From Elusimicrobiota bacterium (lineage in GTDB: Bacteria; Elusimicrobiota; Elusimicrobia; UBA1565; UBA9628), in assembly GCA_030696455.1 (NCBI GenBank), contig JAUYSH010000043.1, positions 1-64,000 on the forward strand: a stretch of DNA of 64,000 nucleotides, read 5' to 3'. How positions within the stretch are numbered: position 1 is the stretch's first letter; every line of letters begins with the position of its first letter. The notes under the pieces are model-generated. The model did not search any database and was not told where the DNA came from. It worked only from the letters and a program-made list of their open reading frames with translations. Both the position numbers and the translations under genes were made by a program. Of this stretch, positions 1,532-23,581 are shown piece after piece.

Positions 1532-1581
1532 TTCAAGGCCCGCCCCGCGGCCTCACTTACCATACGATTGATATGGACGAA

Positions 1582-4952: not shown

Positions 4953-4968
4953 AGGGTCGCTTAGCCGC

Positions 4969-5739: not shown

Positions 5740-5910
5740 CCTTCTTCGCTATCGTATCCATCCGCAGCATCCGCCAACAGCCCTCGACGAAGAGGTCCAA
5801 GCGCGACGTCTTCGTGGTCGAGGGTGGCGCCGGCCACGGGCAAGTCCGTCATCGCGGTGCGTTTGCTGGCCGAGACTCTGATGAAGAAGCGCGATGGCGT
5901 TCTTCGTGGC
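5740..5910 (+). pseudogene. DUF2075 Walker A fragment (decayed)
   Basis: A short stretch reads KRDVFVVEGGAG, then after a one-base insertion TGKSVIAVRLLAETLMKKRD. This is the Walker A segment expected to follow the truncated DUF2075 protein at 1-784. The sequence at 5796-5817 matches 757-778 at 20 of 22 bases, so the same gene position occurs on both sides of the 0.78-5.8 kb block. The fragment ends at the attC-like site at 5911. From 5635 to about 5740 no gene is seen. Confidence 0.5.
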
Positions 5911-5967
5911 GCCGAACGCTTAGCAGAGCGGCGGGCGCAGCCCGGCCGCTCAAGCGTCTGGTTCGGC
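5911..5967 (-). other. attC-like recombination site, downstream end of the cassette
   Basis: On the minus strand the site opens with GCCGAAC and closes with GTTCGGC, exact complements corresponding to R'' and R' boxes. Inside are ACGCTT/AAGCGT and AGCGG/CCGCT arms with unpaired extra bases on one side, then a GGGC/GCCC tip. This is the imperfect palindrome of integron attC sites, with the crossover G/TT at 5917/5916. The stop codon of the preceding gene (5950-5952) lies inside the site, as usual in gene cassettes. The fourth box base is G/C rather than the consensus pyrimidine/purine. Confidence 0.65.
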
Positions 5968-6795
5968 AGGCCGTCTATCGGGATGTGCTTGCCAATAATC
6001 TTCGAGCGCCCCAAACCCCGCCGGCACATGTAGCCAGCCGTTATCTTCGGGAGTGAATGCAAAGTCAGCATACTCTTCAGGCTCTGCGGGCTGCGGGGTT
6101 GTCTTACCCAAGTACCCGTAGAACAGGTGATTAATCTTGCAACCCGACACATGCCCTCTTAGCTCGTGCCAGCGAGCATCCTCATCATAGCCCTCTTCGC
6201 TAAGAGAGCTACGCTCAAAACCCCACACTTCGCATTCAGCTTGAAGTACGCCGCGCCCCATCGCAGTGAAATGCTCCTTAGTGAAGTACTGTTGCGGATC
6301 AATTTCGGACCCAAGAACCACATAGCAATCGAGAACGATTTCCAGCAAGGTCACAAAATGCTGTCGGCACACTGAAACAATATCTTGATGCTCTAATGCC
6401 GGGATTCCGAGTCGATCATCAAAGAAATACTCCGCTTTATCCCCATGGAAAGTGCCGCCGCGGATAGGATAAGGACCGCCGTGAACGTGGTCGTTTCGCA
6501 AATCAAGAAGATATTTGGCAACGGGATCACTTTGCAGGCGCTCTCTATGCGACAGATACCAGGACTCAAAATTAGGGATGTCCTTGAATTGCTGTAGCGC
6601 AAGTGTTGTCGTTCTAGAAGCCGAGAGATACGCGCTCAAGTAGCATTGAAACGCGAATATATCCGTGCCCGCTTTGGCCATAGCGGCGAGAAAGAGCTCG
6701 GCTTCGGCCGTCTTGTGGTCGACTGTATCGAAGGTGTGTTCCATATAGACGGAGATATTTTGGCACATCCACAGCGCCAGCCTGTCCTTCGGCAT
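5950..6795 (-). CDS. Cassette-borne protein with HEPN-like RNDHVH motif
   Basis: A 281-residue, mostly helical soluble protein of unknown function. LLDLRNDHVHGG (about residue 100) fits the R-x4-H signature of HEPN RNases and is preceded by long helices, which suggests but does not prove an RNA-cleaving or nucleotidyl-transfer role. Base composition is lower in GC than the flanks. The gene fills the space between two attC-like sites and its end lies inside one of them, so it is a classic one-gene integron cassette. An ATG at 6801 would straddle the crossover point; the ATG at 6795 (MPKDRLAL) lies just inside the cassette and is preferred. Confidence 0.6.
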   Translation of the reverse strand: MPKDRLALWMCQNISVYMEHTFDTVDHKTAEAELFLAAMAKAGTDIFAFQCYLSAYLSASRTTTLALQQFKDIPNFESWYLSHRERLQSDPVAKYLLDLRNDHVHGGPYPIRGGTFHGDKAEYFFDDRLGIPALEHQDIVSVCRQHFVTLLEIVLDCYVVLGSEIDPQQYFTKEHFTAMGRGVLQAECEVWGFERSSLSEEGYDEDARWHELRGHVSGCKINHLFYGYLGKTTPQPAEPEEYADFAFTPEDNGWLHVPAGFGALEDYWQAHPDRRPAEPDA

Positions 6796-6848
6796 GAACA
6801 TACGAGCTGAGCGGCGTGCAAAGCCCGGCCGCTCTAGCGCGGTTCGGT
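6791..6848 (-). other. attC-like site at the upstream end of the cassette
   Basis: On the minus strand the boxes are ACCGAAC (R'') and GTTCATG (R', joining the next cassette), separated by GCTAGAGCGG and CCGCTCAGC arms and a CCGGGC/GC-rich tip. About 26 bases match the site at 5911-5967, including GAGCGGCCGGGCT. The two sites are in the same orientation and define an 882-bp cassette (5917-6798). R' does not match its own R'' fully, which is normal because those bases belong to the following cassette. Confidence 0.6.
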
Positions 6849-6939
6849 GTCGATAGCTTCCCGCTTTCTAGGACTTTCTGGGCCTTGTGGCGGAATCTTC
6901 TTTTCGATCCAACGGGCCCAAATTCAATAGAATCCAGAT

Positions 6940-8508
6940 ATGACTGACGCCAAAGAGACGGAGCGGGCTGAGCTCCATAAAACCATTTGGCGCATCGCCA
7001 ACGACCTGCGCGGCAGCGTAGACGGCTGGGATTTCAAGACCTATGTGCTCGGCATGCTGTTTTACCGCTTTATCTCGGAGAACCTGTCGGGCTACCTGAA
7101 CGAGCACGAACGCAAGGCTGGCCATAAGAACTTCGACTATACCGCCTTGAGCGACAAAGACGCCAAGCGCGGTCGCGAGACGACTATCGACGATAAGGGG
7201 TTTTACATCTTACCGTCCCAGTTGTTCGCGAACGTACGCAAGCGCGCCCGCACCGACGCCAACCTCAATGAGACTCTCGCCAAAGTCTTCAAGGCCATAG
7301 AAAGCTCGGCCCAGGGTACGGAGAGCGAGGACGACTTAAAAGGGCTATTCGACGACCTGGACGTCAACAGCGCCAAGCTTGGCCCCACTGTGGCTAAGCG
7401 CAATGAAAAGCTGGTCAAGCTACTGGACGCCATCGGCGACCTGCCGCTGGGCTCCGTACCGGGCGCCAGCATCGACCTTTTCGGCGACGCCTACGAATAT
7501 CTCATGCAGATGTACGCCTCCACCGCCGGCAAGTCCGGAGGTGAGTTCTACACCCCGCAGGAGGTCTCGGAGCTTCTCGCCCGCATCACCGTGGCTGGCA
7601 AGACTTCAGTCAACAAGGTCTATGACCCGGCATGCGGCTCGGGCTCTCTTCTACTGAAATTCTCCAAGGTGCTGGGGCCGGGCAAGGTCCGGCAGGGCTT
7701 CTTCGGCCAGGAAGTCAACCTCACCACCTACAACCTTTGCCGCATCAACATGTTCCTGCACGACGTCGGTTACGAGAAGTTCAACATCGCCCACGGCGAC
7801 ACTCTGACCGATCCCGCGCACATGGATGACGAGCCATTCGAGGCCATCGTCTCAAACCCCCCGTATTCCATCAGGTGGGAAGGCGACTCCAACCCGGTCC
7901 TCATCAATGACCCGCGCTTCGCCCCCGCCGGAGTTCTGGCGCCCAAGAGCAAGGCTGACCTGGCCTTCACCATGCACATCTTAAGCTGGCTCGCCACCGA
8001 CGGCACGGCGGCCATCGTAGAGTTCCCGGGCGTACTGTACCGCGGCGGCGCGGAAGCAAAGATCCGCCAATATCTCATCGACAACAACTATATCGACGCC
8101 GTCATCCAGCTTCCGCCAGACCTTTTCTTCGGCACCACCATCGCCACCTGCATCATAATCCTGAAAAAGAGTAAGCGCGACAACAAGACCCTGTTCATCG
8201 ACGCTTCCGCCGAGTTCGTCCGCAGCGGCAACAAAAACAAGTTGACCAAACAGAACCAGGCAAAAATCCTGGCCGCCTTCATTTCGCGCAAGGACACCGC
8301 ACACTTCGCCAAGCTGATAGATAATAAGGCCCTCGAGGAAAACGGCTACAACATCTCGGTCTCTTCATACATCGAGCATAAGGACACGCGCGTGGCCATT
8401 GATATCAAGGCACTGAACGCGGACATCGCGCGCATCGTCAAGCGCCAGACCGAACTTCGCAAGCAGATAGACGCGATCGCAGCTGATTTGGACGGAGATC
8501 GGGCGTGA
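6940..8508 (+). CDS. hsdM: Type I restriction-modification methyltransferase subunit HsdM
   Basis: A 522-residue N6-adenine methyltransferase. An N-terminal helical domain (LHKTIWRIANDLRGSVDGW) is followed by the catalytic domain with SAM-binding DPACGSGSLLL (about 229-239) and catalytic NPPYSIRW (motif IV). GEFYTPQEVSELL just before motif I is typical of the family. It forms a 2:1 complex with HsdS that methylates the target and joins HsdR for cleavage. Length matches EcoR124-type subunits. The stop overlaps the GTG start of hsdS (GTGA at 8505-8508), giving tight coupling. Only about 90 bases separate the gene from the divergent integron cassette. Confidence 0.95.
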   Translation: MTDAKETERAELHKTIWRIANDLRGSVDGWDFKTYVLGMLFYRFISENLSGYLNEHERKAGHKNFDYTALSDKDAKRGRETTIDDKGFYILPSQLFANVRKRARTDANLNETLAKVFKAIESSAQGTESEDDLKGLFDDLDVNSAKLGPTVAKRNEKLVKLLDAIGDLPLGSVPGASIDLFGDAYEYLMQMYASTAGKSGGEFYTPQEVSELLARITVAGKTSVNKVYDPACGSGSLLLKFSKVLGPGKVRQGFFGQEVNLTTYNLCRINMFLHDVGYEKFNIAHGDTLTDPAHMDDEPFEAIVSNPPYSIRWEGDSNPVLINDPRFAPAGVLAPKSKADLAFTMHILSWLATDGTAAIVEFPGVLYRGGAEAKIRQYLIDNNYIDAVIQLPPDLFFGTTIATCIIILKKSKRDNKTLFIDASAEFVRSGNKNKLTKQNQAKILAAFISRKDTAHFAKLIDNKALEENGYNISVSSYIEHKDTRVAIDIKALNADIARIVKRQTELRKQIDAIAADLDGDRA

Positions 8509-9740
8509 GCCGCATAAATAAGCTCATCACCAAGCTCTGCCCGAAAGGCGTGGAGTTTAAGAGTATCGGGGAGATCGCGGATTGCTACGGCGGGGCGACG
8601 CCGGCATCTGGAATGTCGGCCTATTGGGAAAACGGAACCATCCCATGGATGAGCTCGGGCGAAGTTAACAAGGGAACGGTACATGTCACTGACAAACAAA
8701 TAACGCAAGCCGCCTACGACTCTTGCAGCACGAAGATGGTGCCTTCGAATGCGGTGGTCATCGCACTAGCTGGGCAAGGAAAGACTCGAGGAATGGCCGC
8801 CAGGACTCGGCTCGCGCTCTGCACAAATCAATCACTATGCTCAGTAGTCTGCAAAGAATCGATGAGCAGCGATTTTCTCTACCACTACCTCCAAACCCAG
8901 TATCACCAACTGCGCAGCGTGTCGTCCGGTGCTGGCGCGCGAGGCGGCTTGAATCTGCAAATGATTCGAGTCTATCGCATTCCCGTTCCGCCGCTTGAAA
9001 TCCAACGCGAAATCGTAAAAGTCCTTGATACATTTACGGAATTGGAAGCGAAACTCGAGGCCGAACTGGGAGCAAGACAGAAACAGTACAGGCACTACCG
9101 CGATTCGCTGTTGTCTTTTGAAGACTCCACCAAAAGAGAGGGGGTCCGGTGGGTGACTTTGAAAGAGGTTGGCGAGTTCACGCGCGGACGGAGATTCACC
9201 AACGACGATTTCGTGGAGTCAGGGATTCCGTGCATCCACTATGGCGAAGTCTACACCCACTACGGCCTATCCGCTACGGAAACAAAATCGTTCGTGCGAC
9301 CAGAACTGGCTCCGTCCCTTCGCATGGCGAAGACCGGAGATTTGATAATCGCAGGAACAGGCGAGAATGTCGAAGACATCGGCAAGGCTGTCGCGTGGCT
9401 TGGTAAGAGTGAAGTCGCAGTCCACGACGATTGCTACATCTTCAAGCATTCGTTGAATCCAAAGTATGCCGCCCATTTCTTTCAGTCCAGCCGGTTCAAC
9501 GAGCAGAAGGTCAAATATTCCGCAGGCGCCAAAATGATTCGGATTCAGAGCGAAGGCCTGCGAAAGATTCACGTTCCTGTCCCGACTCTTGAAGAGCAAG
9601 CCCGCATCGTTGCGATTCTCGACAAGTTTGATGCACTGACCAACGACCCCTCCACAGGTCTGCCCGCCGAAATAGCCGCGCGGCGCCAGCAATACGAGCA
9701 CTGCCGAGACCGTCTACTTACCTTCAAGGAAGCCGCGTGA
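8505..9740 (+). CDS. hsdS: Type I restriction-modification specificity subunit HsdS
   Basis: A 411-residue protein with two target-recognition domains, each followed by a helical spacer: TRD1 about 15-165, conserved IPVPPLEIQREIVKVLDTFT (about 165-184); TRD2 about 215-365, conserved VPVPTLEEQARIVAILDKFD (about 364-383). The TRDs read the two halves of a split DNA target and the spacers set the gap. GTG start overlaps the hsdM stop. Base composition in the TRDs is lower in GC than in hsdM, as expected for exchangeable specificity modules. Both TRDs appear intact. Confidence 0.92.
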   Translation: MSRINKLITKLCPKGVEFKSIGEIADCYGGATPASGMSAYWENGTIPWMSSGEVNKGTVHVTDKQITQAAYDSCSTKMVPSNAVVIALAGQGKTRGMAARTRLALCTNQSLCSVVCKESMSSDFLYHYLQTQYHQLRSVSSGAGARGGLNLQMIRVYRIPVPPLEIQREIVKVLDTFTELEAKLEAELGARQKQYRHYRDSLLSFEDSTKREGVRWVTLKEVGEFTRGRRFTNDDFVESGIPCIHYGEVYTHYGLSATETKSFVRPELAPSLRMAKTGDLIIAGTGENVEDIGKAVAWLGKSEVAVHDDCYIFKHSLNPKYAAHFFQSSRFNEQKVKYSAGAKMIRIQSEGLRKIHVPVPTLEEQARIVAILDKFDALTNDPSTGLPAEIAARRQQYEHCRDRLLTFKEAA

Positions 9741-12715
9741 GCAAACGCCCGCCCCGCTACGAGCCCATCGCGCTTTCCGACGAGAGCACGGTCGTCGCCG
9801 AGTTCATCCCGGAGAGCCAAGTCCGCGAGAAGGCCTACCAAAGTGAAGCAGACCTCGAACGAGACTTCCTCGAGCGCCTTGAGGCCCAGGGTTACGAGCA
9901 CCTCGCTATCCGCGTAGAAGACGATCTCATCAAGAACCTGCGCCAGCAACTTGAAGCGCTCAACGACATCAAGTTCTCGGACAACGAATGGGAGCGCTTC
10001 TTTAAAGAGAAGATCGCCGGAGCAAACGACGGCATCGTCGAGAAGACCGCGCGCATCCAGGAAGACCACGTCCAAATCCTCAAACGTGACGACGGCAGCG
10101 TCAAAAATATCTACCTGCTCAATAAAGAGCGCATTCACGCCAACCACCTCCAAGTCATCAACCAATACGAGGCGGAAGGGGAGCGCAAGAACCGTTACGA
10201 CGCGACCATCCTGGTCAACGGCCTTCCGTTGGTTCATGTGGAGGTCAAGCGTCGCGGCGTTGACATCCGCGAGGCCTTCAATCAGATAGACCGCTACCAG
10301 CGCGATAGCTTCTGGGCGGGCTCTGGTCTCTTCGAGTATGTCCAGCTCTTCGTCATCAGCAACGGCACCCTCACTAAGTATTACAGCAACACCGTGCGCG
10401 ACGGCCATTTGGCAGAGCTGCGCCGCGCGCGCGCGCGCAAGAAGACCTCGAACAGCTTCGCCTTCACGAGCTGGTGGGCCGATGGACGCAATAAGCCCAT
10501 CACAGAACTAGTCCATTTCACCAAGACCTTCTTCGCCAAACACACGCTCCTGAATGTCCTCACTAGGTTTTGTGTCTTCGACTCGGAACGCAAGCTCCTG
10601 GTCATGCGCCCCTACCAGATTGCCGCCACCGAACGCATCTTACAGCGCATCGCCACCTCCACCAACCATAGGCAGTTGGGCACGACCGCAGCCGGTGGCT
10701 ATATCTGGCATACCACAGGCTCCGGAAAGACACTGACCAGCTTTAAGACGGCGCGGCTCGCCAGCCGCTTGGATGGCCTCGATAAGGTGCTCTTCGTGGT
10801 CGACCGCAAGGACCTGGACTACCAGACCATGAAAGAGTACGACCGCTTCGAGAAGGGCGCGGTCGACGGGACCAACAACACGGCCAAGCTCAAGCAGCAC
10901 CTGGAAGATACGAGCTCCCGCATCATCGTTACGACCATCCAGAAGCTCAGCAAATTCGTCTCCAGCAACAAGAAGCATCCGGTTTATGACCAGCACTGCG
11001 TGGTCATTTTCGACGAATGCCACAGAAGCCAATTCGGCGACATGCACCTGGAGATCACCAAGGTCTTCAAGCGCTACCACCTCTTTGGATTCACCGGTAC
11101 TCCCATCTTCGCGGAGAACGCCCGCTCGGGCGGGCAGCAACGATTGCGCACCACCCAACAGGTCTTCGGCGACGGTCTGCACAAGTACACTATCGTAAAT
11201 GCAATCGACGACAAAAACGTCCTGCCATTCCGTATAGACTTCATCAACACCATCAAGGCCGCCCCGGGGATCAAAGACAAGAAGGTGCCCGCGATCGACA
11301 CAGAGAAAGCTCTGCTCTCTCCCAAGCGCGTGGAGCAGGTCGCTGCATACATTCGTGAACACTACGAACAGAAGACCAAGCGCGGGTTTAATTCGCTTTT
11401 CGCCACCGCCTCCATCGAGGCCGCCAGACGCTACTACGCCGAATTCAAACAACAGCAGGCGCAATTACCCAAAGGTCGTCGCCTCAAGATCGGCCTCATC
11501 TACAGTTTCGCCGCGAACGAGGAGAACCCCGACGGACTGCTTGGCGAAGAGGAGTTCGAGACGGCCGAGCTCGATAAGAGCTCCCGGGATTTCCTGGAAG
11601 GTGCCATCAAAGACTACAACACCCTGTTTAGCACGAACTTCGATACCGGCGAGAGATTCCAGAACTACTACAAGGACCTGTCCCAGCGCCTAAAGAATCG
11701 GGAGCTCGACATCGTGATCGTGGTCAACATGTTCCTGACAGGCTTCGACGCCGCCACGCTCAACACACTCTGGGCGGACAAGAATCTGCGCGCGCACGGG
11801 CTGATCCAAGCCTACTCACGCACCAACCGGATTTTGAACTCGGTCAAAACCTACGGCAACATCGTCACCTTCCGCGACCTGGAGCAAGAAACCAACGACG
11901 CCTTGGCCTTATTCGGCAACGAAGACGCCAAAGGCGTGGTCCTACTAAAGCCCTACGCCGACTATCACGCAGAGTACACGAAGCTCGTCGCCAAGCTCGC
12001 TAATGGCTTCCCTGCCGGCCAAGCGATAGTCGGCGAAGCGGCGAAAAAGGAATTCGCCAAACTCTTCGGTCAGATTCTACGCGTGCGCAATATTCTCACT
12101 GCGTTCGACGACTTCACAGGCGACGCGACTATCACAGAACGCGACTTACAGGACTACCAAAGTCTCTACCTGGACATTCACGCAGACCTACGCAGTGCTG
12201 CCAAAGCCGACAAGGAGTCCATCAACGATGACTTGGTATTCGAACTGGAGTTGGTCAAGCAGGTAGAAGTCAACGTTGACTACATCCTGCTGCTCGTTGA
12301 GAAGTACTTGAAGGCAAAGGACGCGAACGCGAAGGCGGAAATCCGCGCCGGCATCAACCGCTCCGTGGACTCAAGCCCCTCTCTGCGTGACAAGAAGGAC
12401 CTCATCGAGCAATTCGTGGACTCCGTATCCACGTCAAAGTCCCTGGACAATGCTTGGACCACCTTCATCGCCACCAAAAAGCGCGAGGAGCTTTCGCGCA
12501 TCATCGCCGAGGAAGGCCTCGACCCGGAGAAAACAAAGGCGTTCATTGCGGATGCCTTCCGCGACGGAGCTGTTCCAGTTACGGGCGTAGCCATAACGAA
12601 AATCCTGCCGCCCGCCTCCCGTTTCTCCGTGGACGGCGCCCACGCGATCAAGAAGCGGACGGTCTTAAATCGCCTGCTCGCCTTCTTCAGCCGATACTTT
12701 GGCCTCGGCGCATAA
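9737..12715 (+). CDS. hsdR: Type I restriction endonuclease subunit HsdR
   Basis: A 992-residue motor/nuclease. The N-terminal nuclease has Asp155, Glu169 and Lys171 (RYDATILVNGLPLVHVEVKR), the PD-ExK site. The SF2 translocase follows, with Walker A IWHTTGSGKTLTSF, DECH box VIFDECHRSQFGD, FGFTGTPIF, and later motif VI QAYSRTNRIL. The C-terminal helical region binds HsdM. It translocates DNA and cleaves far from the unmethylated site. The GTG start overlaps the hsdS stop (GTGA). All motifs are intact, so the system is probably functional. After it, 12716-12905 holds no gene. Confidence 0.95.
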   Translation: MSKRPPRYEPIALSDESTVVAEFIPESQVREKAYQSEADLERDFLERLEAQGYEHLAIRVEDDLIKNLRQQLEALNDIKFSDNEWERFFKEKIAGANDGIVEKTARIQEDHVQILKRDDGSVKNIYLLNKERIHANHLQVINQYEAEGERKNRYDATILVNGLPLVHVEVKRRGVDIREAFNQIDRYQRDSFWAGSGLFEYVQLFVISNGTLTKYYSNTVRDGHLAELRRARARKKTSNSFAFTSWWADGRNKPITELVHFTKTFFAKHTLLNVLTRFCVFDSERKLLVMRPYQIAATERILQRIATSTNHRQLGTTAAGGYIWHTTGSGKTLTSFKTARLASRLDGLDKVLFVVDRKDLDYQTMKEYDRFEKGAVDGTNNTAKLKQHLEDTSSRIIVTTIQKLSKFVSSNKKHPVYDQHCVVIFDECHRSQFGDMHLEITKVFKRYHLFGFTGTPIFAENARSGGQQRLRTTQQVFGDGLHKYTIVNAIDDKNVLPFRIDFINTIKAAPGIKDKKVPAIDTEKALLSPKRVEQVAAYIREHYEQKTKRGFNSLFATASIEAARRYYAEFKQQQAQLPKGRRLKIGLIYSFAANEENPDGLLGEEEFETAELDKSSRDFLEGAIKDYNTLFSTNFDTGERFQNYYKDLSQRLKNRELDIVIVVNMFLTGFDAATLNTLWADKNLRAHGLIQAYSRTNRILNSVKTYGNIVTFRDLEQETNDALALFGNEDAKGVVLLKPYADYHAEYTKLVAKLANGFPAGQAIVGEAAKKEFAKLFGQILRVRNILTAFDDFTGDATITERDLQDYQSLYLDIHADLRSAAKADKESINDDLVFELELVKQVEVNVDYILLLVEKYLKAKDANAKAEIRAGINRSVDSSPSLRDKKDLIEQFVDSVSTSKSLDNAWTTFIATKKREELSRIIAEEGLDPEKTKAFIADAFRDGAVPVTGVAITKILPPASRFSVDGAHAIKKRTVLNRLLAFFSRYFGLGA

Positions 12716-12905: not shown

Positions 12906-14132
12906 CTATGCTGCTGCGGGGGTTTCTGGGCGGGCTACCCACGCTCGATAACCGGTGCAATCATACCGCGCGGCCTTGAGCAGATCGATTGATTGGGAAA
13001 TCATCTTTTCAAGAACTGCAGGATCATCGGCCATCACTTGGTCGACATCGCGGGCTGTTAGCTGTTTCGCAATGATCTGCAACGCAAGAATCGCTTCTTT
13101 GGGCGGTTCGACGGGCGCAGCGATTGCATGTGGGCGGACTAGATGGGCCTTATCGGCCAGAGACGCTTGTATCGGGCTGAAGTGGAGACAAATCGAGAGC
13201 ATCTCCGGCTCAGCGTCGCCGCCGATACGATAATAGGCAATATCCCCAGCGGCAACTGCCCAGGCAGGTGTTGCTGAAATGAGTTTCCCGAGAATCCATT
13301 TACAGACCCCGACGCCAAAAAACTTCAGAAATTTAGATTTTGAGAGTAGCATCACCTGTGCTGGAGCTCGAGTTAACGCTTCCAGTTTGTGATCGAGTAA
13401 AGCCTCAAGCTGCTTTGTGAACTCGGGATTTGCGGTCATATTATCTTGGATAACGCCCCAAAGTTTTCGCGCATCCTCGTCATAGACGTCGTCGGGAGCT
13501 GTCCGTGTTGTGAGAAAAAGAACCCAAGGCTCAGTGCGGTTCTTAGTTTGAAGTTCCAGCAGCGCGTGAATGCCATCGTAGTAGGTCGGTACTTTTCGTT
13601 CTGGGCTCTGCTTCTTAGACGCAATTGAGTCGCACAGATCGATGTTTATCACGTCAAAAGTGCCAGCCTCAATTATCGCGGCGCGTGCAATTGTGTCCTC
13701 TTGCGCAACTAATTCGAGACGGGCGCTAACAACTCGCGATTTCGTTGAAATATTTGCGAGCCGGCTTACCTCATCTATCGAGATATTAAGTTGCGTGCCT
13801 TCTTTCTTTGGATCTTTGGTTGAAAAGCCGAGATATCGCAGGCTGAGTTTTTGGCGAACACACAACTCGTGAAGGACCCGAACGTCCAACAGGTCGTCGC
13901 CTGGCAAACTTAAATATTTGAGGGGGCGATCATCGCGGAACTTGATTCCCTTAAGAAGAATGCCAATTTCATGCAACCACTGGTACTTTCGAATCCATTG
14001 CTTCCTGGGTTTGTGCCAGGAAGAGAATTCGCGCTTTTCCTCCTCGTGACGCGGAACTTCGGGATAAATCCCATCGACAAGTGATTCCGAAGAAGCTTGA
14101 ACGGGTTTAGGAGACTGATCGGATTCAGTCAT
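12906..14132 (-). CDS. Unrecognised Rossmann-like protein in Dcm/GHKL/Vsr cluster
   Basis: A 408-residue protein that I cannot assign to a named family. Near residue 72 is YLSLPGDDLLDVRVLHELC followed by LRYLGF, and near 160 is FDVINIDLCDSIA. The spacing and hydrophobic-acidic pattern resemble motif I and motif IV regions of Rossmann-fold methyltransferases such as TcmP-type partners, but no catalytic motif is certain. SSWHKPRKQWIRKYQWL near the N-terminus is basic and aromatic and could bind nucleic acid. It overlaps the GHKL ATPase gene as ATGA (14129-14132) and is the last gene of a three-gene operon, so it likely acts with the ATPase and methyltransferase. Visibly AT-richer than the chromosome on either side. 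Confidence 0.6.
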   Translation of the reverse strand: MTESDQSPKPVQASSESLVDGIYPEVPRHEEEKREFSSWHKPRKQWIRKYQWLHEIGILLKGIKFRDDRPLKYLSLPGDDLLDVRVLHELCVRQKLSLRYLGFSTKDPKKEGTQLNISIDEVSRLANISTKSRVVSARLELVAQEDTIARAAIIEAGTFDVINIDLCDSIASKKQSPERKVPTYYDGIHALLELQTKNRTEPWVLFLTTRTAPDDVYDEDARKLWGVIQDNMTANPEFTKQLEALLDHKLEALTRAPAQVMLLSKSKFLKFFGVGVCKWILGKLISATPAWAVAAGDIAYYRIGGDAEPEMLSICLHFSPIQASLADKAHLVRPHAIAAPVEPPKEAILALQIIAKQLTARDVDQVMADDPAVLEKMISQSIDLLKAARYDCTGYRAWVARPETPAAA

Positions 14133-16045
14133 TCGCTTTTCATGTAGAGCAACACATCAGCAACGGAGCCAAGCAAGTGCTGTTGCTGTTTATAGCTCAG
14201 ACCTTCGAGAAGGCCGAATGCATCCAGAATCTTAATCATCGCTTCCAGCTGAGGTAAGATTCGATCGAATTGTTTCTCGGAGCCAATGTTAAAAACCACG
14301 GCGCCAGCTTTTTGTTCTTTTACGGCGGCCCCATTGAATTCTTTGACGAATTTAACTGGAGAATATTCACCGTCACTAACATTGAGATTCTTCGCCGAAA
14401 AAGCAGCCTTGGCAATAATGTTATTGAGTGATGCCGCACCGGCAAGGACAGCGGCAGTCTTTTGCTCCTTTCGAACCTCCTTAAGGAGCGCCTTGTGCCT
14501 ATTCGTGAATTGCCGAATGGCCTGATGGAGCCACTCTGCGACAATCTGATAGTGCGGATGGGCAAAGTTGAATGATTCACGGTCAATATTTAGCGCGGCG
14601 TCCATGCCTTCGTGTACGAATATTTCTACCGAAATCTGTTTAAGACGTGTCAGTTCCGCTACCTGATACTTCATAAAGGTCTCATCGAATAGCGCACCAC
14701 TTGCTTCGTGAATGCGGATCAGAGAGCCAATGTGGTCCTTAGGAACTATTTTGGGAGTCCAGAGAATGTAGGCTTCGAAGGAAAGAGATCCTCCGCGTAG
14801 CTCTTTCGCAAATTTTGAAAGGTCGGGGGTGTAACTTCCGACGAAGATTAGAGGACCTCCCAGAGGGTTCTCAACCTCAGTTACAGGACGAATGCGCAAT
14901 GGGCGAGATAGCTGGACGTCATCGATAAAGACCGTGAATTTCGATCTACCAGTATCGGAAGGGGATGTGAGACTGATCTTGTCTCTTATCTTCTCACCAG
15001 TCTTCAGCACCACTTCTTCAGCTTGTCCGCCCCGCTCATTGCTCAGACGATATACCCGGGCAGTTCCATCTTGGGCGGTGTCAAAAGGATGTCCATCAAT
15101 ATACTCTAGGGGCGCAGAGAGACTCAGAGTCCAAATCATGCGGAGGTAGTTATCGAGTGACTTTTCGAGGGTTGGATTTCGCTCAGTCGACTCTGCTTCG
15201 CTAACGACCGCGTCGACCAATTTGCGAAATCGGACAGGGGATGAGTCCTGCTGGGCCCACGGCACTCGGGGGGCAATAAGAATCGTCTCGGGATTTTTTA
15301 CATCAATACGCCCAATGTGAAAATTGGGTAGCGTCACAGCTCGTTCAGGATCTTCACGCCGAATGAATTCGGCGCGCGCCCACTCTTCTTCCGACCTCAA
15401 ATTCTCTTTTATTTTTGGGAGAAGGTCTAAGAGGACAATGTCCGTGCCGTGGGATTCAATGTCAATCGCCGGCACTCGCCATATTTCAACATCGCCAGTT
15501 TCGTATTCTGCTCGAGGGCGTTCCTTGCGCACTTCATCTTCAGAGTGGGTGTGCAGAATTACGTCGGCAACCATGCGAAAATCTTGCCCTTTCGTTTTTG
15601 TGATGATCTGAAAGTGGCGCGTAAGTTGGGATACGGCGAACAAGCCGATTCCGGATTTCCCGATGAGCTTGCGCCCCCCCGGGCTGCGACTGGGGTCCTC
15701 TTTTTGAGTCACGCCAAGCGCGACGCCATCTATCGAGCGCTTTGGGCTACCGCCGATGTGGTGGACTAATGAAGCCAGTGATTCTGTCGTGAATCCGTTT
15801 CCGTCGTCTCGAATCCGGATCTGATTGAAACGAGGAGAATCGGTTTGAATTACTACAGAAGTGGCATCTGCGTCATAGGCGTTAGTGATTAGCTCACGAA
15901 TTGCTGACGCAGGTTGACGATAGATTCCGTCCGTAACTCGAGCCAAGACTTGCTGATCAGTCGTTAGTTTCGTCTCGATTCGCGCCCCGCCTATTGGTGC
16001 AGCAAGAATTTCTCTTGCTAAGACGAGCGCCGAATCTTCGATCAT
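14129..16045 (-). CDS. GHKL (Hsp90/MutL/MORC-like) ATPase
   Basis: A 638-residue protein with an N-terminal Bergerat-fold ATPase: N-box ELITNAYDADAT (51-62, Asn55), G1 DDGNGF (80-85), G2 GKSGIGLF (129-136). The remaining two thirds would hold the transducer domain and a helical dimerisation region (EVRKEQKTAAVLAGAASL). It is closer in style to the MORC/MutL-like ATPases described next to restriction-modification genes than to true Hsp90, because it begins directly with the ATPase and lacks Hsp90 signature blocks. ATP-driven dimer clamping on DNA is the expected role. It overlaps the dcm gene at 16042-16045 and the 408-residue gene at 14129. Confidence 0.8.
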   Translation of the reverse strand: MIEDSALVLAREILAAPIGGARIETKLTTDQQVLARVTDGIYRQPASAIRELITNAYDADATSVVIQTDSPRFNQIRIRDDGNGFTTESLASLVHHIGGSPKRSIDGVALGVTQKEDPSRSPGGRKLIGKSGIGLFAVSQLTRHFQIITKTKGQDFRMVADVILHTHSEDEVRKERPRAEYETGDVEIWRVPAIDIESHGTDIVLLDLLPKIKENLRSEEEWARAEFIRREDPERAVTLPNFHIGRIDVKNPETILIAPRVPWAQQDSSPVRFRKLVDAVVSEAESTERNPTLEKSLDNYLRMIWTLSLSAPLEYIDGHPFDTAQDGTARVYRLSNERGGQAEEVVLKTGEKIRDKISLTSPSDTGRSKFTVFIDDVQLSRPLRIRPVTEVENPLGGPLIFVGSYTPDLSKFAKELRGGSLSFEAYILWTPKIVPKDHIGSLIRIHEASGALFDETFMKYQVAELTRLKQISVEIFVHEGMDAALNIDRESFNFAHPHYQIVAEWLHQAIRQFTNRHKALLKEVRKEQKTAAVLAGAASLNNIIAKAAFSAKNLNVSDGEYSPVKFVKEFNGAAVKEQKAGAVVFNIGSEKQFDRILPQLEAMIKILDAFGLLEGLSYKQQQHLLGSVADVLLYMKSE

Positions 16046-17073
16046 TGCTTTACCGTGTCGAGGAGGGCGCGAATTACGCTTTCGGCAAGAGGCGGCGGGA
16101 CCGCGTTGGTTACTTGTTGTAGCTGTACGCCGAAATTTCCATAAATCTGAAATTCATCGGGGAATCCTTGAAGACGCGCAGCCTCTCGAACGGTTATGCT
16201 TCTAGCCTGCGTGGGATGCGCGGGGGGCGCTCGATGGCCGGAAATGAGCGTCTGCGCCGGCTTGTCCAAACGAAGACGTCGATATGAGAGTGGACCTTCT
16301 CCGGGTCCCAGTGCCGCAATCTTCGCGCGGACTTCCTTCGAATGGCGCATCGCAATATGATTGCTTGGCGTTCCCACCACGAGGCGTGCTTTTTGCCGAT
16401 TTTTCAGTCTCACGGGAGGGCGCCCTAATCCCTTAAATGCTTCTTCGACAGTAATTTCCGGCTTCTGGTATTTGGTCAAATTCTTGCGAAATTCTACTTC
16501 AGATATCTTTTTTCGAGTGATAATTAGAAACGCGCGACGTCTGCGCTGGGGCACTCCGTATGTCTGGGCGTTGAGTATAATTCTCAAAACACTATACCCC
16601 CCCTTGAATAGTGGATTGAGAACACTCGCGAGCCTTTTAGAATTTCTGGGGCTAAGTATGGAGGGTACATTCTCAATAATGGCTGCTTCTGGCTGCAAAT
16701 TAACAATCGCCTTACTGACAGCGGTAATTACACGATTGCGCGGATCGAGCGGGTCCCGGGGGCCGGCCACTGAGAACCCCTGGCAGGGGGGACCTGAGAA
16801 TATATACAACGGGACCTTGTCCGAATTGTTTTTAGTCGCTACCGCTCTGCTCTGATCAAGAATTGATTGTTCGCTGATGTCACCTTCGATAATTGACGCA
16901 CCAGGAAAGGCGCTTAAGTACGTTTTGAGTGCAGCGTTATTAATGTCAAGCCCCAGTATGGGCTCTATTCCGCATCGTTGCGCTGCGATTGAGAGTCCGC
17001 CAAGTCCGCAGCAAAGGTCAATTGCGGCGCCAATAGCAGTTTTTTTTGTCGAATTCGAGGCAGAGGGGGGCAT
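16042..17073 (-). CDS. dcm: C5-cytosine DNA methyltransferase (Dcm-type)
   Basis: A 343-residue enzyme with all key motifs: I DLCCGLGGLS (19-28; Leu replaces the usual Phe), IV GPPCQGFS with catalytic Cys97, VI ENVP (134-137), VIII QRRRRAFLI, IX RSITVREAARLQGFPDEF and X QVTNAVPPPLA. The target-recognition region between VIII and IX is short. It transfers methyl groups from SAM to cytosine in a specific site. First gene of a minus-strand operon with the GHKL ATPase and the 408-residue protein, and divergent from vsr across 56 bases, the usual pairing because Vsr repairs T:G mismatches arising from deaminated methylcytosine. Confidence 0.93.
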   Translation of the reverse strand: MPPSASNSTKKTAIGAAIDLCCGLGGLSIAAQRCGIEPILGLDINNAALKTYLSAFPGASIIEGDISEQSILDQSRAVATKNNSDKVPLYIFSGPPCQGFSVAGPRDPLDPRNRVITAVSKAIVNLQPEAAIIENVPSILSPRNSKRLASVLNPLFKGGYSVLRIILNAQTYGVPQRRRRAFLIITRKKISEVEFRKNLTKYQKPEITVEEAFKGLGRPPVRLKNRQKARLVVGTPSNHIAMRHSKEVRAKIAALGPGEGPLSYRRLRLDKPAQTLISGHRAPPAHPTQARSITVREAARLQGFPDEFQIYGNFGVQLQQVTNAVPPPLAESVIRALLDTVKQ

Positions 17074-17129
17074 GGATGTACAATGATTCTAGACGTAGTT
17101 GGGCCCCATTGCAATGATTTATATTAAGT

Positions 17130-17555
17130 ATGACTGACGTCTTTTCTAGGCGGAAAAGATCGGCGGTGATGGCTAGGATTCGATCTACGAAGACTACGCC
17201 AGAAACCCTGATGCAGACCGCTCTACGGCGCCAGGGGAAATTGTTCCTCTGCAATGTTGCAAGTCTTCCAGGCCGCCCAGACATTGTATTTAGCCAAGAG
17301 CGTCTGGTGGTGCAAGTGTTGGGTTGCTTTTGGCATGGTCATAGCTGCATCGACGGACACATTCCGTGGAGTCGACGAAAATACTGGATTCCCAAGTTGA
17401 GAGGTAACAAGAAGAGAGACCGCAGGAACGCAACGCGCTTACGGGGTGCGGGGTGGCGAGTTTTAACGGTCTGGGAATGTCAATGCAAGAAAGAAGGTCT
17501 GCTCAATCGACATGTAGGTCGAATTCTGTCAGCACTTAAAAAACCATCAATGTAA
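17130..17555 (+). CDS. vsr: Very-short-patch mismatch endonuclease Vsr
   Basis: A 141-residue protein with the Vsr signature: SRRKRSAVMARIRSTKTTPE near the N-terminus, catalytic Asp51 in LPGRPDIVF, then VQVLGCFWHGHSC with His and Cys ligands for metal/zinc, and GWRVLTVWEC near the end. It nicks 5' of T in T:G mismatches created by deamination of 5-methylcytosine. Transcribed away from the dcm operon. In some related clusters a Vsr-like protein is thought to act as the restriction nuclease together with a GHKL ATPase, so a role beyond repair is possible here. From 17556 to 17691 nothing is recognised. Confidence 0.93.
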   Translation: MTDVFSRRKRSAVMARIRSTKTTPETLMQTALRRQGKLFLCNVASLPGRPDIVFSQERLVVQVLGCFWHGHSCIDGHIPWSRRKYWIPKLRGNKKRDRRNATRLRGAGWRVLTVWECQCKKEGLLNRHVGRILSALKKPSM

Positions 17556-17787: not shown

Positions 17788-18852
17788 TTACGCCAGTTGC
17801 TGAATGGATCCGGCAGCCGCGGTCGCTCGAATCAAGCCCAGCAATTCCCCGCGGATCGCTTTCCAATCATTATCCAGATTCACGGTGCAGACCCGAACCC
17901 GATGTCCCTGGATTGAGTAGCCGGTGCGGAGCTCCGCGCCAACGCTCGGATATAGAAGTATACCCTCCGCGACGGCGTCTTGCCCGCCGTTTTTCTCTAA
18001 ATTCTTAAGGTACGAGAATATCTGATACAGGTTTGAGGAAATCAGCTTCTGCGCGTCGAACCGCCCCTTCAGAGCCTCTTCGTAATACTTCGTGTCGATC
18101 ACCCAAGTCCTGTCATCCGACCTGAGGGTTATATCGGTCACCATTCTGGGAAGGAGAGCCCGATCCTGATCCGAATCCGCCTTGGCGTCCCAGTCGATTA
18201 CCTCGCCACCGACTCTCAAATCCGGACATTCGCGGCGATAAAAATTGAGTACAAAACGCTGGAATAACAGGGGCATCCTTTCGTCCTGAAAGAAATCGAC
18301 GAACTGGCCACCCCTCCCCCTCTCGTCAGGCAAGGCGTGATCGTAAACCAACTCGCACACGCGCATCAAAATCGAGTAGTGGGCGTTATTCTTATTCAGC
18401 TGGAGCTTCCTGAAGAGCGCCCGGCTCAACGGTATCTCCCTGACTCCAACATACCGCTCCCGCAAACTCACGAGCCGCTGCCGCAAGTCGCCGTCAAGCT
18501 CATCCACCCGAGCAAGGCGCGCCAAGCTGCTCTTTAATATCTGATTGTGGAGAATGTCCGCGCTCAATTCCTCATAGACGCACGAGAGCTTCCTTCGCGC
18601 CGGCGACTGCCGCGCGAGCGATTCTCCGAAATCTATGCGGCCGCGAAGAGCGGAGAGCTCTTCTCCGCTCTCGACATAGGACCGATCGAGCCCCCGTTTG
18701 AGGACATGGGTCGCGCCGCCAATCAGAATGTGGGCCAGAAGATCGGCCGCGTTGTGCCCATCCAGGCTTCCCACGTCGACATACCCCGCCTGATCGAGGC
18801 CATCCCAGGCATAGGCGAGCAGGTAGTAGATATTGCGAATCGGAATGGGCAT
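17788..18852 (-). CDS. mcrC: McrC-type 5-methylcytosine restriction subunit
   Basis: A 354-residue McrC homologue. The N-terminal part opens with IPIRNIYYLLAYAWDGL and LRGRIDFGES. The C-terminal PD-(D/E)xK nuclease reads PRMVTDITLRSDDRTWVIDTKYYEE (Asp, Asp-x-Lys), then LISSNLYQIFSYLKN. McrC is the nuclease and GTPase-stimulating partner of McrB in methylation-dependent restriction. It lies 3 bases after the mcrB stop. The presence of a Dcm methyltransferase only 1-3 kb away means the two systems must read different sites or contexts if both are active. Confidence 0.9.
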   Translation of the reverse strand: MPIPIRNIYYLLAYAWDGLDQAGYVDVGSLDGHNAADLLAHILIGGATHVLKRGLDRSYVESGEELSALRGRIDFGESLARQSPARRKLSCVYEELSADILHNQILKSSLARLARVDELDGDLRQRLVSLRERYVGVREIPLSRALFRKLQLNKNNAHYSILMRVCELVYDHALPDERGRGGQFVDFFQDERMPLLFQRFVLNFYRRECPDLRVGGEVIDWDAKADSDQDRALLPRMVTDITLRSDDRTWVIDTKYYEEALKGRFDAQKLISSNLYQIFSYLKNLEKNGGQDAVAEGILLYPSVGAELRTGYSIQGHRVRVCTVNLDNDWKAIRGELLGLIRATAAAGSIQQLA

Positions 18853-18855
18853 TGG

Positions 18856-20973
18856 CTACTTCAGAAGCTTCTCGACTATGCCGTCCACTTCCGCCTGCGT
18901 CTTTTCGAACCAATACTCGCGAAGGAGGGGCGCGATCTCGCGCTGGATAACGCGGGCGTACCACTGGTCGTCTAGCTTTTCGACCCCGGATGCGGGGCAA
19001 AAATAACTGTGGCCGACCCGGTATCCCGCCCCAAGATCCCGATCCTCGACTATGCGCTTATTAAGATCTTCGATGGAGGCTCGGATCTTGGCGACCAGGT
19101 TCCTTGAAGCCCCCCGATCGAGAAGAAGGCGCTCGAACTTGGCGTCGTCGAAACCGGGCGGGATGTCCACGAACGCGAACCTGCGGCGGAGCGCGTAGTC
19201 CACCATGGCCAAGGAGCGATCGGCGGTGTTCATCATCCCGAGGATGAACACGTTGTCCGGAACGAAGAATTCCTGTTGGCCGCCGTCATCCTGGGCAAGG
19301 GAGATCCTCCATTTTGGACCCCGCTTGTCAGCCTCGATGAGAAGCATCAGTTCGCCGAGGATGCGGCTCAGATTCCCGCGGTTAATCTCGTCGATGATGA
19401 GGACGTGGCGCTTATCGGGTCGCGCGCGAGCCTCGTCGCAGAAACGATAGAAAGCCCCCCGCGTCAGGCGGAATCCGTCGCCATCCTTCGCGGGCCGGTA
19501 ACCCTGGACAAAGTCTTCATAACCGTATGATTGGTGAAATTGGACACAATCAACCCGGCTGTCATCGTCCTCGCCGATGAGCGCGTAGGCGATTTTTTTT
19601 GCCATGAACGATTTCCCGACGCCCGGAGGCCCCTGCAAAATAACGTTCTTCTTGCTGTTTAACAGGTCGATGATCTCCGCCAGACGAGGGCGCGGAAGAA
19701 ACAGTTCCTGGGCCGCGTCCTCCAGCGAATAGGCTGACCCGGACGAAATCATCATCGGGGCGCCGGGCGCGTGCGGATAGAAATATCCGAACGTGCTCTG
19801 GTTCAGGAAGGCTTTGTGCGATTTCGTCCAGCGCGTCGCGAGCCGCGCTAAGGAGGGATCGACGGGCGGGTCGAGCTCCTCGATCTCCGACACCTTAAAC
19901 CACGTGCGAAATGAGAATCCGCCGTCGCGCACGCCACTTCGACCCCTGTGACCAGAATCCAAGAGATCGGGCCAGGGGCACTTCGAGCCCTCAAGCCCCG
20001 TGACGAAGTCGACGACGCGCATCCGATACTTAAGCTTTCCGCCGCCGACGTTGATGTAGACAAAGAAAGGCTTACGAAGTTCCGGGAGCGCGGTCTCTTT
20101 TATGCGGAAGCTCCAAACCGACGGCCAGAACTTATTCTTTTTGATGTGACCGCGAATCGCGTCAAGCCTTTCGTCGATGTCCTTCCAAGTGCCGACGAGA
20201 GCCAACTCCTCGCCTTTAAGGTCGTCCTCGCCCACCACGGCTAATTCCGACTCGGACTCCTCCTCTTCTTCCTCGGCGCTTTCCGCGCGCGACTTCCCAT
20301 ATGCCCAGAGCACGTGCTCGACATACCAGTACTTATTTTCAGTTTTGGAATCGAAAGCCGTCTTATAGATGTTCGCCAGCTCATCGTGAATGTCCCAAAA
20401 TTCGATAAAGGCCTGGGCGAGATCGTCCGCTTCCCGATATAGCCCCAACGATTCGAGGGTTTGCCGCGAGTTGTGGTAATAGATCGGAGCGAAGCGGGGA
20501 TCCTGAATCTGCCAAAAGTAGCTGAGCAGATAGGGAACGGAACCGACACGGAAGCCACCTTGAGTTAAGAAACGCGGAATGCCTTCCGCCATTTCCTTGA
20601 TCTTGCTTGCGGCTTCCGCCTTCGACTTAGGCAACGCCAGGCATTTGCGCAAAAAAGCCGCCGTTTCCGCGTCGTCTCGAGAATATTTGGAGATTCCGTT
20701 GACGACCATCTGTCCACTGAAGGACGTAAATCCCCACAAATTATGGCCGAACGCCATCTTGTTGCTTATATCCCGAAATTCCCTAAGGTTCGCGGACCCT
20801 TCGAGGAATTTATCGAGCTCCGGGTGCATATCCTTGAGGGCGTCTTCCCGCGCGCGATCCCAGTCTTTATAATCGTTGTACGTCGTGCCCTGATACGCGA
20901 GCGTAAAACCGCCGCTGCGGAATTTTTCGAGAAGCTCGAGCGCCTTTTCGGTCTGTGCAGGGGAAAGCGGCAT
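18856..20973 (-). CDS. mcrB: McrB-type AAA+ GTPase restriction subunit
   Basis: A 705-residue protein. The C-terminal motor has Walker A LQGPPGVGKSFMAKK (about residue 449), Walker B HVLIIDEINRGNLSRI and the McrB-specific GMMNTADRSLAMVDYALRRR, which replaces the usual NKxD. The long N-terminal region is not the E. coli DUF3578 type. It has a helical domain (about 1-235, with SYFWQIQDPRFAPIYYHNSR), an acidic linker (EEEEEESESE) and a beta-rich domain (about 265-370, WSFRIKETALPELRKPFFVY) that could be a PUA/EVE-like base reader. It loads on modified DNA and translocates with McrC. Confidence 0.88.
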   Translation of the reverse strand: MPLSPAQTEKALELLEKFRSGGFTLAYQGTTYNDYKDWDRAREDALKDMHPELDKFLEGSANLREFRDISNKMAFGHNLWGFTSFSGQMVVNGISKYSRDDAETAAFLRKCLALPKSKAEAASKIKEMAEGIPRFLTQGGFRVGSVPYLLSYFWQIQDPRFAPIYYHNSRQTLESLGLYREADDLAQAFIEFWDIHDELANIYKTAFDSKTENKYWYVEHVLWAYGKSRAESAEEEEEESESELAVVGEDDLKGEELALVGTWKDIDERLDAIRGHIKKNKFWPSVWSFRIKETALPELRKPFFVYINVGGGKLKYRMRVVDFVTGLEGSKCPWPDLLDSGHRGRSGVRDGGFSFRTWFKVSEIEELDPPVDPSLARLATRWTKSHKAFLNQSTFGYFYPHAPGAPMMISSGSAYSLEDAAQELFLPRPRLAEIIDLLNSKKNVILQGPPGVGKSFMAKKIAYALIGEDDDSRVDCVQFHQSYGYEDFVQGYRPAKDGDGFRLTRGAFYRFCDEARARPDKRHVLIIDEINRGNLSRILGELMLLIEADKRGPKWRISLAQDDGGQQEFFVPDNVFILGMMNTADRSLAMVDYALRRRFAFVDIPPGFDDAKFERLLLDRGASRNLVAKIRASIEDLNKRIVEDRDLGAGYRVGHSYFCPASGVEKLDDQWYARVIQREIAPLLREYWFEKTQAEVDGIVEKLLK

Positions 20974-23066: not shown

Positions 23067-23212
23067 ACTTGAAGTCGCAAATTGCGACTTCAAGTTTGAG
23101 GTCACAAATTGTGACCTCAAAATAAGCCAATCAAAATTTATGTTTTACTCCAAATCTTAAGGTTGCAAATTGCAACCTTAAGATCTCAAGGTGCCAAATT
23201 GGCACCTTAAGA
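23067..23212. repeat. Four co-varying palindromes with CAAATTG core
   Basis: Four near-perfect palindromes sit in one intergenic gap: 23067-23095 (14+1+14, perfect), 23095-23121 (13+1+13, perfect), 23154-23184 (15+1+15, perfect) and 23184-23212 (14+1+14, one mismatch). All share the centre CAAATTG, but the next bases differ and stay complementary: GTCG/CGAC, GTCA/TGAC, GTTG/CAAC and GTGC/GCAC. The pairs touch or share an end base and the two pairs are 32 bases apart. A fifth copy is inside the ORF6N relic at 23434-23454. They could be protein-binding operators, transcribed hairpins or remnants of a repeated coding motif. Confidence 0.8.
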
Positions 23213-23248
23213 CAGGGAACAATTCGGGGGGCTCAATCGTATGAAGGC

Positions 23249-23581
23249 ATGGATATAGACAAAGTCGTCCCCCTGATTCATGTCGTCCGAGGTCAAAGAG
23301 TCATGCTGGACGAAGATCTCGCGCGCTTATACGGCGTCGCCACGAAATACCTCAATCAACAAGTTCAACGAAATCGCTCTGATTTTCCGGCGGATTTCAT
23401 GTTTCGCTTGACCGCGGAGGAAAGCGATCGTCTAAGGTCACAAATTGTGACCTTGGAGGGCGGAGAAGGCCCTGCTCGGTCTGGAGAAGGAGCAGGGGGA
23501 GCACGCGGCCGCGATCCACGAGCTGTTCGCGGAGTTCCGGCGGCTGGCGGACGCGTCCGGGCCTGGCGGCAAGGCGGTATA
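23249..23581 (+). pseudogene. Decayed ORF6N/KilA-N-type DNA-binding protein
   Basis: The N-terminus is a standard ORF6N domain: IHVVRGQRVMLDEDLARLYGV, LNQQVQRNRSDFPADFMFRL, then LRSQIVTLE. Right after this the frame loses family similarity. In the +1 frame a typical helical C-terminus follows (EKALLGLEKEQGEHAAAI up to a TAA at 23579). The middle of the gene, including the usual AFTEQGVAML block, is missing, so an internal deletion with a frameshift has occurred. The break lies beside the palindrome at 23434-23454, whose bases encode RSQIVTL. These proteins are common in phages and mobile elements. Confidence 0.65.
23434..23454. repeat. Fifth CAAATTG palindrome, inside the ORF6N relic
   Basis: Arms AAGGTCACAA and TTGTGACCTT (10+1+10, perfect) lie in the codons for RSQIVTL. 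The sequence matches the second intergenic palindrome almost exactly (GAGGTCACAA there). The deletion in the ORF6N gene starts just after this palindrome. Confidence 0.8.

What the first reader, a model, noticed from the sequence alone, without database searches (positions are those of the whole stretch)
12906..17555. Dcm - GHKL ATPase - unrecognised Rossmann-like protein - Vsr cluster
Three minus-strand genes overlap by ATGA and a divergent vsr lies 56 bases away. MORC/MutL-like GHKL ATPases next to Dcm and Vsr have been described by comparative genomics as parts of restriction-like systems, but the usual helicase or Z1-type and clear nuclease partners are missing here. Instead a 408-residue protein with LPGDDLLDVR and FDVINIDLCDS follows the ATPase. 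Vsr or this protein may supply the effector. The block is visibly AT-richer than its surroundings, which suggests transfer as one unit.
Basis: partly seen in the sequence, partly recalled or inferred. Interest (0 to 1): 0.65.

Follow-up and report, generated by a model that had tools for sequence, protein, structure and literature searches.

The report
Three-gene methylase–ATPase anti-phage cassette
This is a mobile set of three genes found together (a DNA methylase, a clamp-like ATPase and a protein of unknown job that folds like a methylase), sometimes with a repair gene, and its places in bacterial and prophage DNA suggest that it defends against phages by a mechanism not yet worked out.

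Summary
In detail: Dcm, GHKL ATPase and the 408-aa protein overlap by ATGA on the minus strand, a divergent vsr starts 56 bases away, and the block is the most AT-rich stretch of the 64 kb. In 22 distinct loci the unit is Dcm–GHKL–408-aa protein (22 of 22, found from either end); Vsr was seen in only 5 of 22, so it is unlikely to be the effector. Many copies are bare three-gene prophage cassettes. One lies between P2-type gpA and portal genes, a published antiviral hotspot. The 408-aa protein belongs to a named but functionless NCBI family (NF047698). Its AlphaFold model has a class I methyltransferase fold without the usual SAM loop; invariant residues gather at the cofactor-side strand ends, and a divergent homologue lacks the motif-I stretch. 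No nuclease signature was found in ATPase or partner. Best reading: a paraMORC-type restriction-like defence in which Dcm marks self and an ATP-driven GHKL clamp plus a repurposed methyltransferase-fold partner acts on unmarked DNA. The effector chemistry is not shown. New variant of a known kind (GHKL restriction-modification systems, Iyer 2008).

The parts
12906..14132 (-). 408-aa partner, NF047698 (PP_RS20740 family), class I methyltransferase-like fold without a GxG loop
   Evidence: NCBIfam 360 bits, cut-off 200; AF2 pLDDT 81.2, pTM 0.82; best VIA match 3axs Z 13.8, rmsd 4.3, 235 aligned
14129..16045 (-). paraMORC-like GHKL + S5 (Hsp90/MORC/MutL-type) ATPase, 638 aa
   Evidence: PF13589 53.9 bits; AF2 pLDDT 72.3; VIA 6xlg Hsc82 Z 16.4, 5ix2 MORC3 Z 16.1; ELITNAYDA and NIDRESFN motifs
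16042..17073 (-). Dcm-type C5-cytosine methyltransferase, 343 aa
   Evidence: PF00145 187.7 bits; GPPCQGFS, IIENV, PQRRRR
17130..17555 (+). Vsr mismatch endonuclease, 141 aa, accessory, divergent
   Evidence: TIGR00632 123.5 bits, cut-off 97.85; 1cw0 E 3.3e-27 with active-site region aligned

Best explanation
A horizontally moved restriction-like anti-phage cassette of the paraMORC kind. Dcm methylates a cytosine motif in the host genome (self mark; inferred from intact motifs). The GHKL+S5 ATPase forms an ATP-gated dimeric clamp on DNA (inferred from fold and intact motifs). The methyltransferase-fold partner, translated just after it, is its obligate second subunit and engages DNA, most likely reading the unmodified site or holding the catalytic pocket, so that unmarked phage DNA is cleaved, trapped or otherwise blocked (inferred). 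Vsr is an optional accessory that repairs T:G mismatches left by deamination of 5-methylcytosine (inferred from the E. coli pair). Shown: gene content, obligate linkage of the three genes, folds, intact Dcm, ATPase and Vsr motifs, mobile-element contexts. Not shown: methylation, restriction, complex formation, effector chemistry.
For: Triad in 22 of 22 distinct loci, detected from the partner side and independently from the GHKL side (18 of 18 viral-contig loci, 7 of them new). In the window's phylum, full-length GHKL relatives occur in 2 of 288 genomes (the second, G084, as two pieces), both with the partner. Same-strand overlapping genes in the window. Window context: type I R-M (hsdM, hsdS, hsdR) and McrBC-like genes on the two sides. 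Prophage contexts: L018 triad between a gpA-like gene (phrog_91) and a portal gene (phrog_68), the region that PMC9122126 describes as an antiviral hotspot (passages); L020 triad between integrase (phrog_1) and a cI-like repressor (phrog_4), like the second hotspot type in that paper. Related GHKL proteins: the N-terminal part matches the BbrUII/HgiDII restriction enzyme model (67 bits) and PADLOC type II REase models; VcSduA, a GHKL-nuclease fusion, needs its ATPase and nuclease residues for defence (PMC12137116, passages).
Against: No nuclease domain was recognised in GHKL or partner, so cleavage is not supported directly. PADLOC has no model for the partner (0 of 6 partner proteins scanned). 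P2-type hotspots also carry genes that are not defence genes (PMC9122126). Most compared loci are viral contigs, chosen by the collection searched. No match in E. coli genomes, phage records or plasmids, so there is no experimental strain at hand. The mirror-tree signal is modest.
Confidence: 0.55

Rival explanations
1. The partner is an active enzyme (SAM-dependent or binding another nucleotide-like cofactor) that adds a second DNA, RNA or protein modification, so the cassette is a modification-plus-clamp system (BREX-like block, no cleavage).
For: Class I methyltransferase fold; 15 of 36 invariant residues lie at the C-terminal ends of strands 1-5, 4.9 expected; one glycine of the loop is kept in most members.
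Against: No GxG at the motif I position in 15 of 15 sequences (the two GxG found in L005 lie away from motif I); L012 has YLGLAERDLLDL there, without that glycine; the divergent homologue in L013 lacks the motif-I stretch; no sequence relation to Dcm or TcmP found.
Confidence: 0.17
2. A private very-short-patch repair and maintenance set: Dcm, a MutL-like ATPase and Vsr keep methylated cytosines from mutating; the partner is an adaptor.
For: Dcm, Vsr and a MutL-like ATPase are the known VSP players (stated in PMC2292703); Vsr active-site region intact.
Against: Vsr seen in only 5 of 22 loci; in L006 it also lies beside a second C5 methylase and Eco29kI-type genes; the conserved unit is the triad, carried by prophages.
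Confidence: 0.1
3. Phage-serving modification: Dcm protects the element's own DNA from host restriction or sets gene expression, with GHKL and partner as regulators.
For: Frequent in prophage contigs.
Against: Also in chromosomal defence surroundings (window); an ATPase clamp and partner would be unneeded for simple protection, yet are present in 22 of 22 loci.
Confidence: 0.13

Closest known systems
MORC/paraMORC restriction-modification systems (Iyer, Abhiman, Aravind 2008, PMC2292703)
   Same: GHKL+S5 ATPase encoded with C5 methylase and sometimes Vsr, patchy and mobile
   Different: Helicase and RE-fold nuclease are the usual partners there; here neither is in the unit, and a methyltransferase-fold protein takes the place. 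Figure 2 of that paper (not held) shows uncharacterised X1-X3 and Z1-Z3 domains; I could not check whether one of them is this partner.
BbrUII/HgiDII-type restriction enzymes (NF050001)
   Same: GHKL protein next to a C5 methylase, named by NCBIfam as the restriction enzyme; N-terminal ATPase region matches
   Different: Score 67 against a cut-off of 550 bits; the rest of the protein does not match; separate partner here
Shedu type with GHKL (VcSduA, paraMORC3; PMC12137116)
   Same: GHKL ATPase in anti-phage defence
   Different: Nuclease domain DUF4263 fused there; none found here
HEF_HK + Response_reg_2 modules (PMC8011034)
   Same: GHKL gene + downstream Rossmann-like gene + C5 methylase
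   Different: Receiver-like partner, unrelated by profile comparison; a locus resembling this kind is elsewhere in the same genome (L040)
P. putida PP_RS20740 (NF047698)
   Same: Same protein family
   Different: Known only from a furfural-tolerance mutation V338F (PMC9630843, passages); no link to methylase or ATPase made in the passages seen

Membership tests
NF047698 PP_RS20740 family (408-aa protein) | score at or above 200 bits | tested here: met
   360 bits; 6 of 7 further partners scanned also pass, L013 does not (62 bits)
Class I SAM methyltransferase (408-aa protein) | seven-strand Rossmann-like fold with the strand 6-7 hairpin | tested here: met
   AF2 elements; VIA Z 13.8 to 3axs, and other methyltransferases at Z 11-12.7; Foldseek E 4.9e-5, TM-scores low at 0.25-0.33
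Class I SAM methyltransferase (408-aa protein) | motif I glycine loop (GxG) for SAM | tested here: not met
   0 of 15 have GxG at motif I
Class I SAM methyltransferase (408-aa protein) | SAM binding and methyl transfer | not testable with these tools
   needs purified protein
C5-cytosine methyltransferase (Dcm) | PF00145 with PCQ and ENV motifs | tested here: met
Vsr | TIGR00632 cut-off and alignment over the active-site region | tested here: met
   123.5 bits, cut-off 97.85
MORC proper (GHKL protein) | GhXhhpXXRhl motif in S5 | tested here: not met
   pattern absent in 14 of 15 GHKL proteins including the window's; only L013 matches
paraMORC (GHKL protein) | GHKL with intact motifs plus S5 domain, in an R-M context, without the MORC motif | tested here: met
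paraMORC5 | C-terminal domain with HxH | tested here: inconclusive
   HPH present in 14 of 15, but it lies next to the S5 region and the 2008 alignment is not held
paraMORC3 / Shedu | fused PD-(D/E)xK (DUF4263) domain | tested here: not met
   no such Pfam match at E<=1 in the window GHKL nor at E<=10 in three homologues
BbrUII/HgiDII restriction enzyme | NF050001 at 550 bits | tested here: not met
   67.2 bits
HEF_HK / Response_reg_2 | PF19191 and PF19192 matches | tested here: not met
   no match; hhalign prob 0.2 to PF19192 protein L025
Restriction-modification system | methylation-dependent restriction | not testable with these tools
   needs plating and methylome assays

The most novel reading that the evidence does not exclude
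The NF047698 protein is a methyltransferase fold that lost SAM use and became the DNA reader or effector of an ATP-driven GHKL clamp: a nuclease-less, methylation-gated immune system in which Dcm acts as the antidote.
Probability: 0.25. Interest if true: 0.75.

Novelty: new variant of a known kind. Interest (0 to 1): 0.52.

Why it matters
GHKL/MORC ATPases in restriction-like operons were predicted in 2008, and how they act remains largely open. A minimal three-gene version without helicase, without a recognisable nuclease and dispensable of Vsr, small enough to clone (about 4 kb), makes the question directly testable and bears on how MORC, Hsp90 and MutL-type clamps read DNA methylation. It also gives a context to a protein family (PP_RS20740) known until now only by name and a furfural-tolerance mutation.

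Tried and rejected
Vsr as effector: rejected because it was seen in only 5 of 22 loci. Relation to Response_reg_2/HEF_HK: PF19192 gave 0 of 198 genomes in the phylum and 2 of 229 in the class of Caballeronia; hhalign found nothing. Relation to TcmP, an idea from memory: hhalign prob 0.1. Relation to Dcm itself by duplication: prob 0.1. PDB sequence searches gave nothing usable for the partner. Fold searches put the partner only among methyltransferase-fold proteins; absence of a nuclease fold from those lists is not evidence of absence. E. coli genomes, phages and plasmids: no partner found; one viral scan with the L013 homologue found none. Att repeats or an insertion boundary of the block: nothing convincing. 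Promoter and terminator scan: not above chance for terminators, 8 against a mean of 4.1 for promoters, not used. Mirror-tree: Spearman GHKL-partner 0.73 over 11 representatives, but 0.50 without window and L013, against 0.45-0.46 for pairs with Dcm: weak, not used as proof. No complex prediction was possible. Paper searches for this unit; none of the listings showed it, but only an open-access library was searched and figures are not held.
Full report
What is there. The window holds Dcm (16042-17073, -), a GHKL ATPase (14129-16045, -) and a 408-aa protein (12906-14132, -) with 4-base overlaps, and a divergent vsr (17130-17555, +) 56 bases from dcm. All four genes have GC3 near 0.50 while neighbouring hsdS, hsdR and mcrBC-like genes have 0.62-0.77, and the block is the AT-richest 4.65 kb of the window. 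Type I R-M genes lie on one side (6940-12715) and a tRNA-Ser and McrC- and McrB-like genes on the other.

Family of the 408-aa protein. Pfam, PADLOC and PHROGs have no model for it; NCBIfam has NF047698, PP_RS20740 family, 360 bits against a cut-off of 200, without a function. It is rare: over the cut-off in 1 of 294 genomes drawn from the window's phylum, the window's own, and in 2 of 369 of the class of Caballeronia, one of them the starting genome. In one search two further genomes matched below the cut-off: G084, a true divergent homologue (hhalign probability 97.5), and G037 (18.8 bits, not followed).

Conservation of the order. Relatives came from a genome scan (2 loci), class and phylum searches and a viral-contig scan with a partner alignment (11 loci). 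Dcm and GHKL lie beside the partner in all of them. To test the linkage from the other side I scanned viral contigs with the GHKL alignment: 18 loci, all 18 with Dcm and partner, 7 of them new. After removing repeats of the same contig or prophage (L007, L024 and L073 are the L006 element; L071, L075, L080-L085, L087, L088 repeat earlier ones) there are 22 distinct loci: window, L005, L006, L012, L013, L014-L023, L072, L074, L076, L077, L078, L079, L086. Triad 22 of 22; Vsr 5 of 22 (window, L005, L006, L013, L072). Several of the 22 are close relatives of each other (for example L014/L017 and L018/L019/L022), so the number of independent lineages is smaller, about ten by my reading of that table. 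The stretches differ in length, so a Vsr beyond an edge could be missed: L079 starts at its dcm; L020, L021, L023, L078 and L086 have an integrase-like gene directly upstream (phrog match made for L020 only). Gene order is Dcm-GHKL-partner on one strand in most; in L006 and L076 dcm is inverted and downstream, in L005 it is downstream. In L086 the GHKL gene is split in two frames.

Dcm exchange. The window Dcm is 28-31% identical to the Dcm of 13 of the 14 compared loci, which among themselves share 41-98%; its closest in that set is L013 (37%), and L072 is closer still (46%). The window GHKL shows no such distance (37-43% to the same 13). So Dcm lineages have been exchanged while GHKL and partner stayed together. 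The three loci with a window-like Dcm (window, L013, L072) all have Vsr; of the other 19, two do (L005, L006), and in L006 Vsr also neighbours an Eco29kI-type methylase and nuclease pair.

Mobile context. In L014-L023 the triad is a bare cassette in proviral contigs. Flanks identified by PHROGs (10 flanking proteins scanned): L018 gpA-like replication gene on one side and portal on the other; L022 a repressor upstream; L014 tail fibre and primosomal genes; L015 NinB; L016 tail and endolysin; L020 integrase and cI-like repressor. PMC9122126 (passages only) places an antiviral hotspot of P2-like phages between gpA and the portal gene, and another, in Vibrionaceae, between cI and integrase of a P2-related phage.

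Structure of the partner. AlphaFold2 with 12 sequences gives pLDDT 81.2, pTM 0.82: five parallel-type strands alternating with helices, then a strand 6-7 hairpin, as in class I methyltransferases. VIA-align: 3axs Trm1 Z 13.8 (rmsd 4.3, 235 aligned), many other methyltransferases at Z 11-12.7, and also GRAS-domain plant regulators at Z about 11, that I recall as methyltransferase-like folds used for regulation. Foldseek agrees but with low TM-scores. None of 15 sequences has GxG at motif I; D80, D83, N163, D165, C167, T208, T209 and R210 are invariant in the 12-row alignment and 15 of 36 invariant residues sit at strand ends on the cofactor side, 4.9 expected, P 9e-6 by a simple hypergeometric count that ignores clustering along the chain. 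L013 lacks the motif-I stretch in the alignment but keeps NLD and WxxFxTxR. I read this as a methyltransferase scaffold with a kept pocket and a changed use.

Structure of the ATPase. GHKL and S5 parts (28-522) match Hsp90 (Z 16.4), MORC3 (16.1), SMCHD1 (15.8), topoisomerase VI-B (14.7) and MutL (14.6); model confidence is moderate (72.3). NIDRES(F/Y)N, which I liken from memory to the Hsp90 middle-domain motif with the ATP-contacting arginine, is in 14 of 15 and as NIDRASFR in L013. The MORC-specific motif is absent in 14 of 15. HPH follows the S5 part in 14 of 15, a lead to paraMORC5, not a proof. The part after about residue 522 (a long helix and a small, poorly predicted region) is barely tested.

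How it probably works. GHKL clamps act with a nuclease in the same chain or a separate one (PMC2292703, read); in VcSduA ATPase and nuclease residues are both needed for defence (PMC12137116, passages). Here the gene that follows the ATPase and never leaves it in our sample is the methyltransferase-fold protein. The best-supported reading is that Dcm marks self, and the clamp with its partner acts on unmarked DNA. Vsr is optional and most likely limits C-to-T mutation at methylated sites, as in E. coli. Steps beyond gene content and fold are inference.

Results against. No nuclease signature was found, so destruction of DNA is not supported directly; the partner might be an active enzyme of another kind. 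No experimental data exist for any triad in the papers seen. The furfural paper (PMC9630843, passages) found a V338F mutation in PP_RS20740 that helped tolerance, which my reading does not explain.

Novelty. The theme is known since 2008; the partner, its fold and the obligate three-gene unit were not found in the searches named under Tried and rejected. PADLOC of 2023 does not cover the partner. I rate it a new variant of a known kind.

Noticed in passing
L040 (own genome, contig C74), 3718-10399 minus: A second Dcm/GHKL locus: a Vsr-Dcm fusion (573 aa), a 703-aa protein with an N-terminal HATPase_c_3 and a C-terminal HATPase_c, a receiver-like 401-aa protein without Pfam match, and two further ORFs; it resembles the HEF_HK/Response_reg_2 modules of PMC8011034.
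   Followed up: partly
L013:10702-12120: A Dcm with an N-terminal stretch like the endonuclease III iron-sulfur end (PF10576 19.9 bits, cut-off 20.5), next to the divergent GHKL-340aa-Vsr set: a possible link of base-excision repair to the methylase.
   Followed up: partly
window 3114-12715 and 17788-20973: Defence island: NERD-UvrD helicase, DUF2726 protein, type I R-M hsdM-hsdS-hsdR, McrC- and McrB-like pair.
   Followed up: partly
L006:1276-3969: A C5 methylase followed by an Eco29kI restriction endonuclease and a second weak Eco29kI-like protein, beside the Vsr of the Pusillimonas element.
   Followed up: no
L072:9829-10419 and L040:3718-4767: Two ORFs near Vsr-bearing loci share, by eye, a RARDxxxCVLC...-type stretch that looks like an HNH motif; no Pfam match for the L040 one at E<=0.01.
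   Followed up: no
L086:2246-4230: The GHKL gene is split into two frames in this viral contig, while Dcm and partner are open.
   Followed up: no
L028 (Acinetobacter wuhouensis plasmid, 1-8433): Tn7-like transposition genes followed by Dcm, a GHKL ATP-binding protein and an exoribonuclease-annotated gene, without the NF047698 partner.
   Followed up: no
window 23067-23453: Four copies of a 24-base palindromic repeat around CACAAATTGTG, spacing 27, 61 and 275.
   Followed up: no
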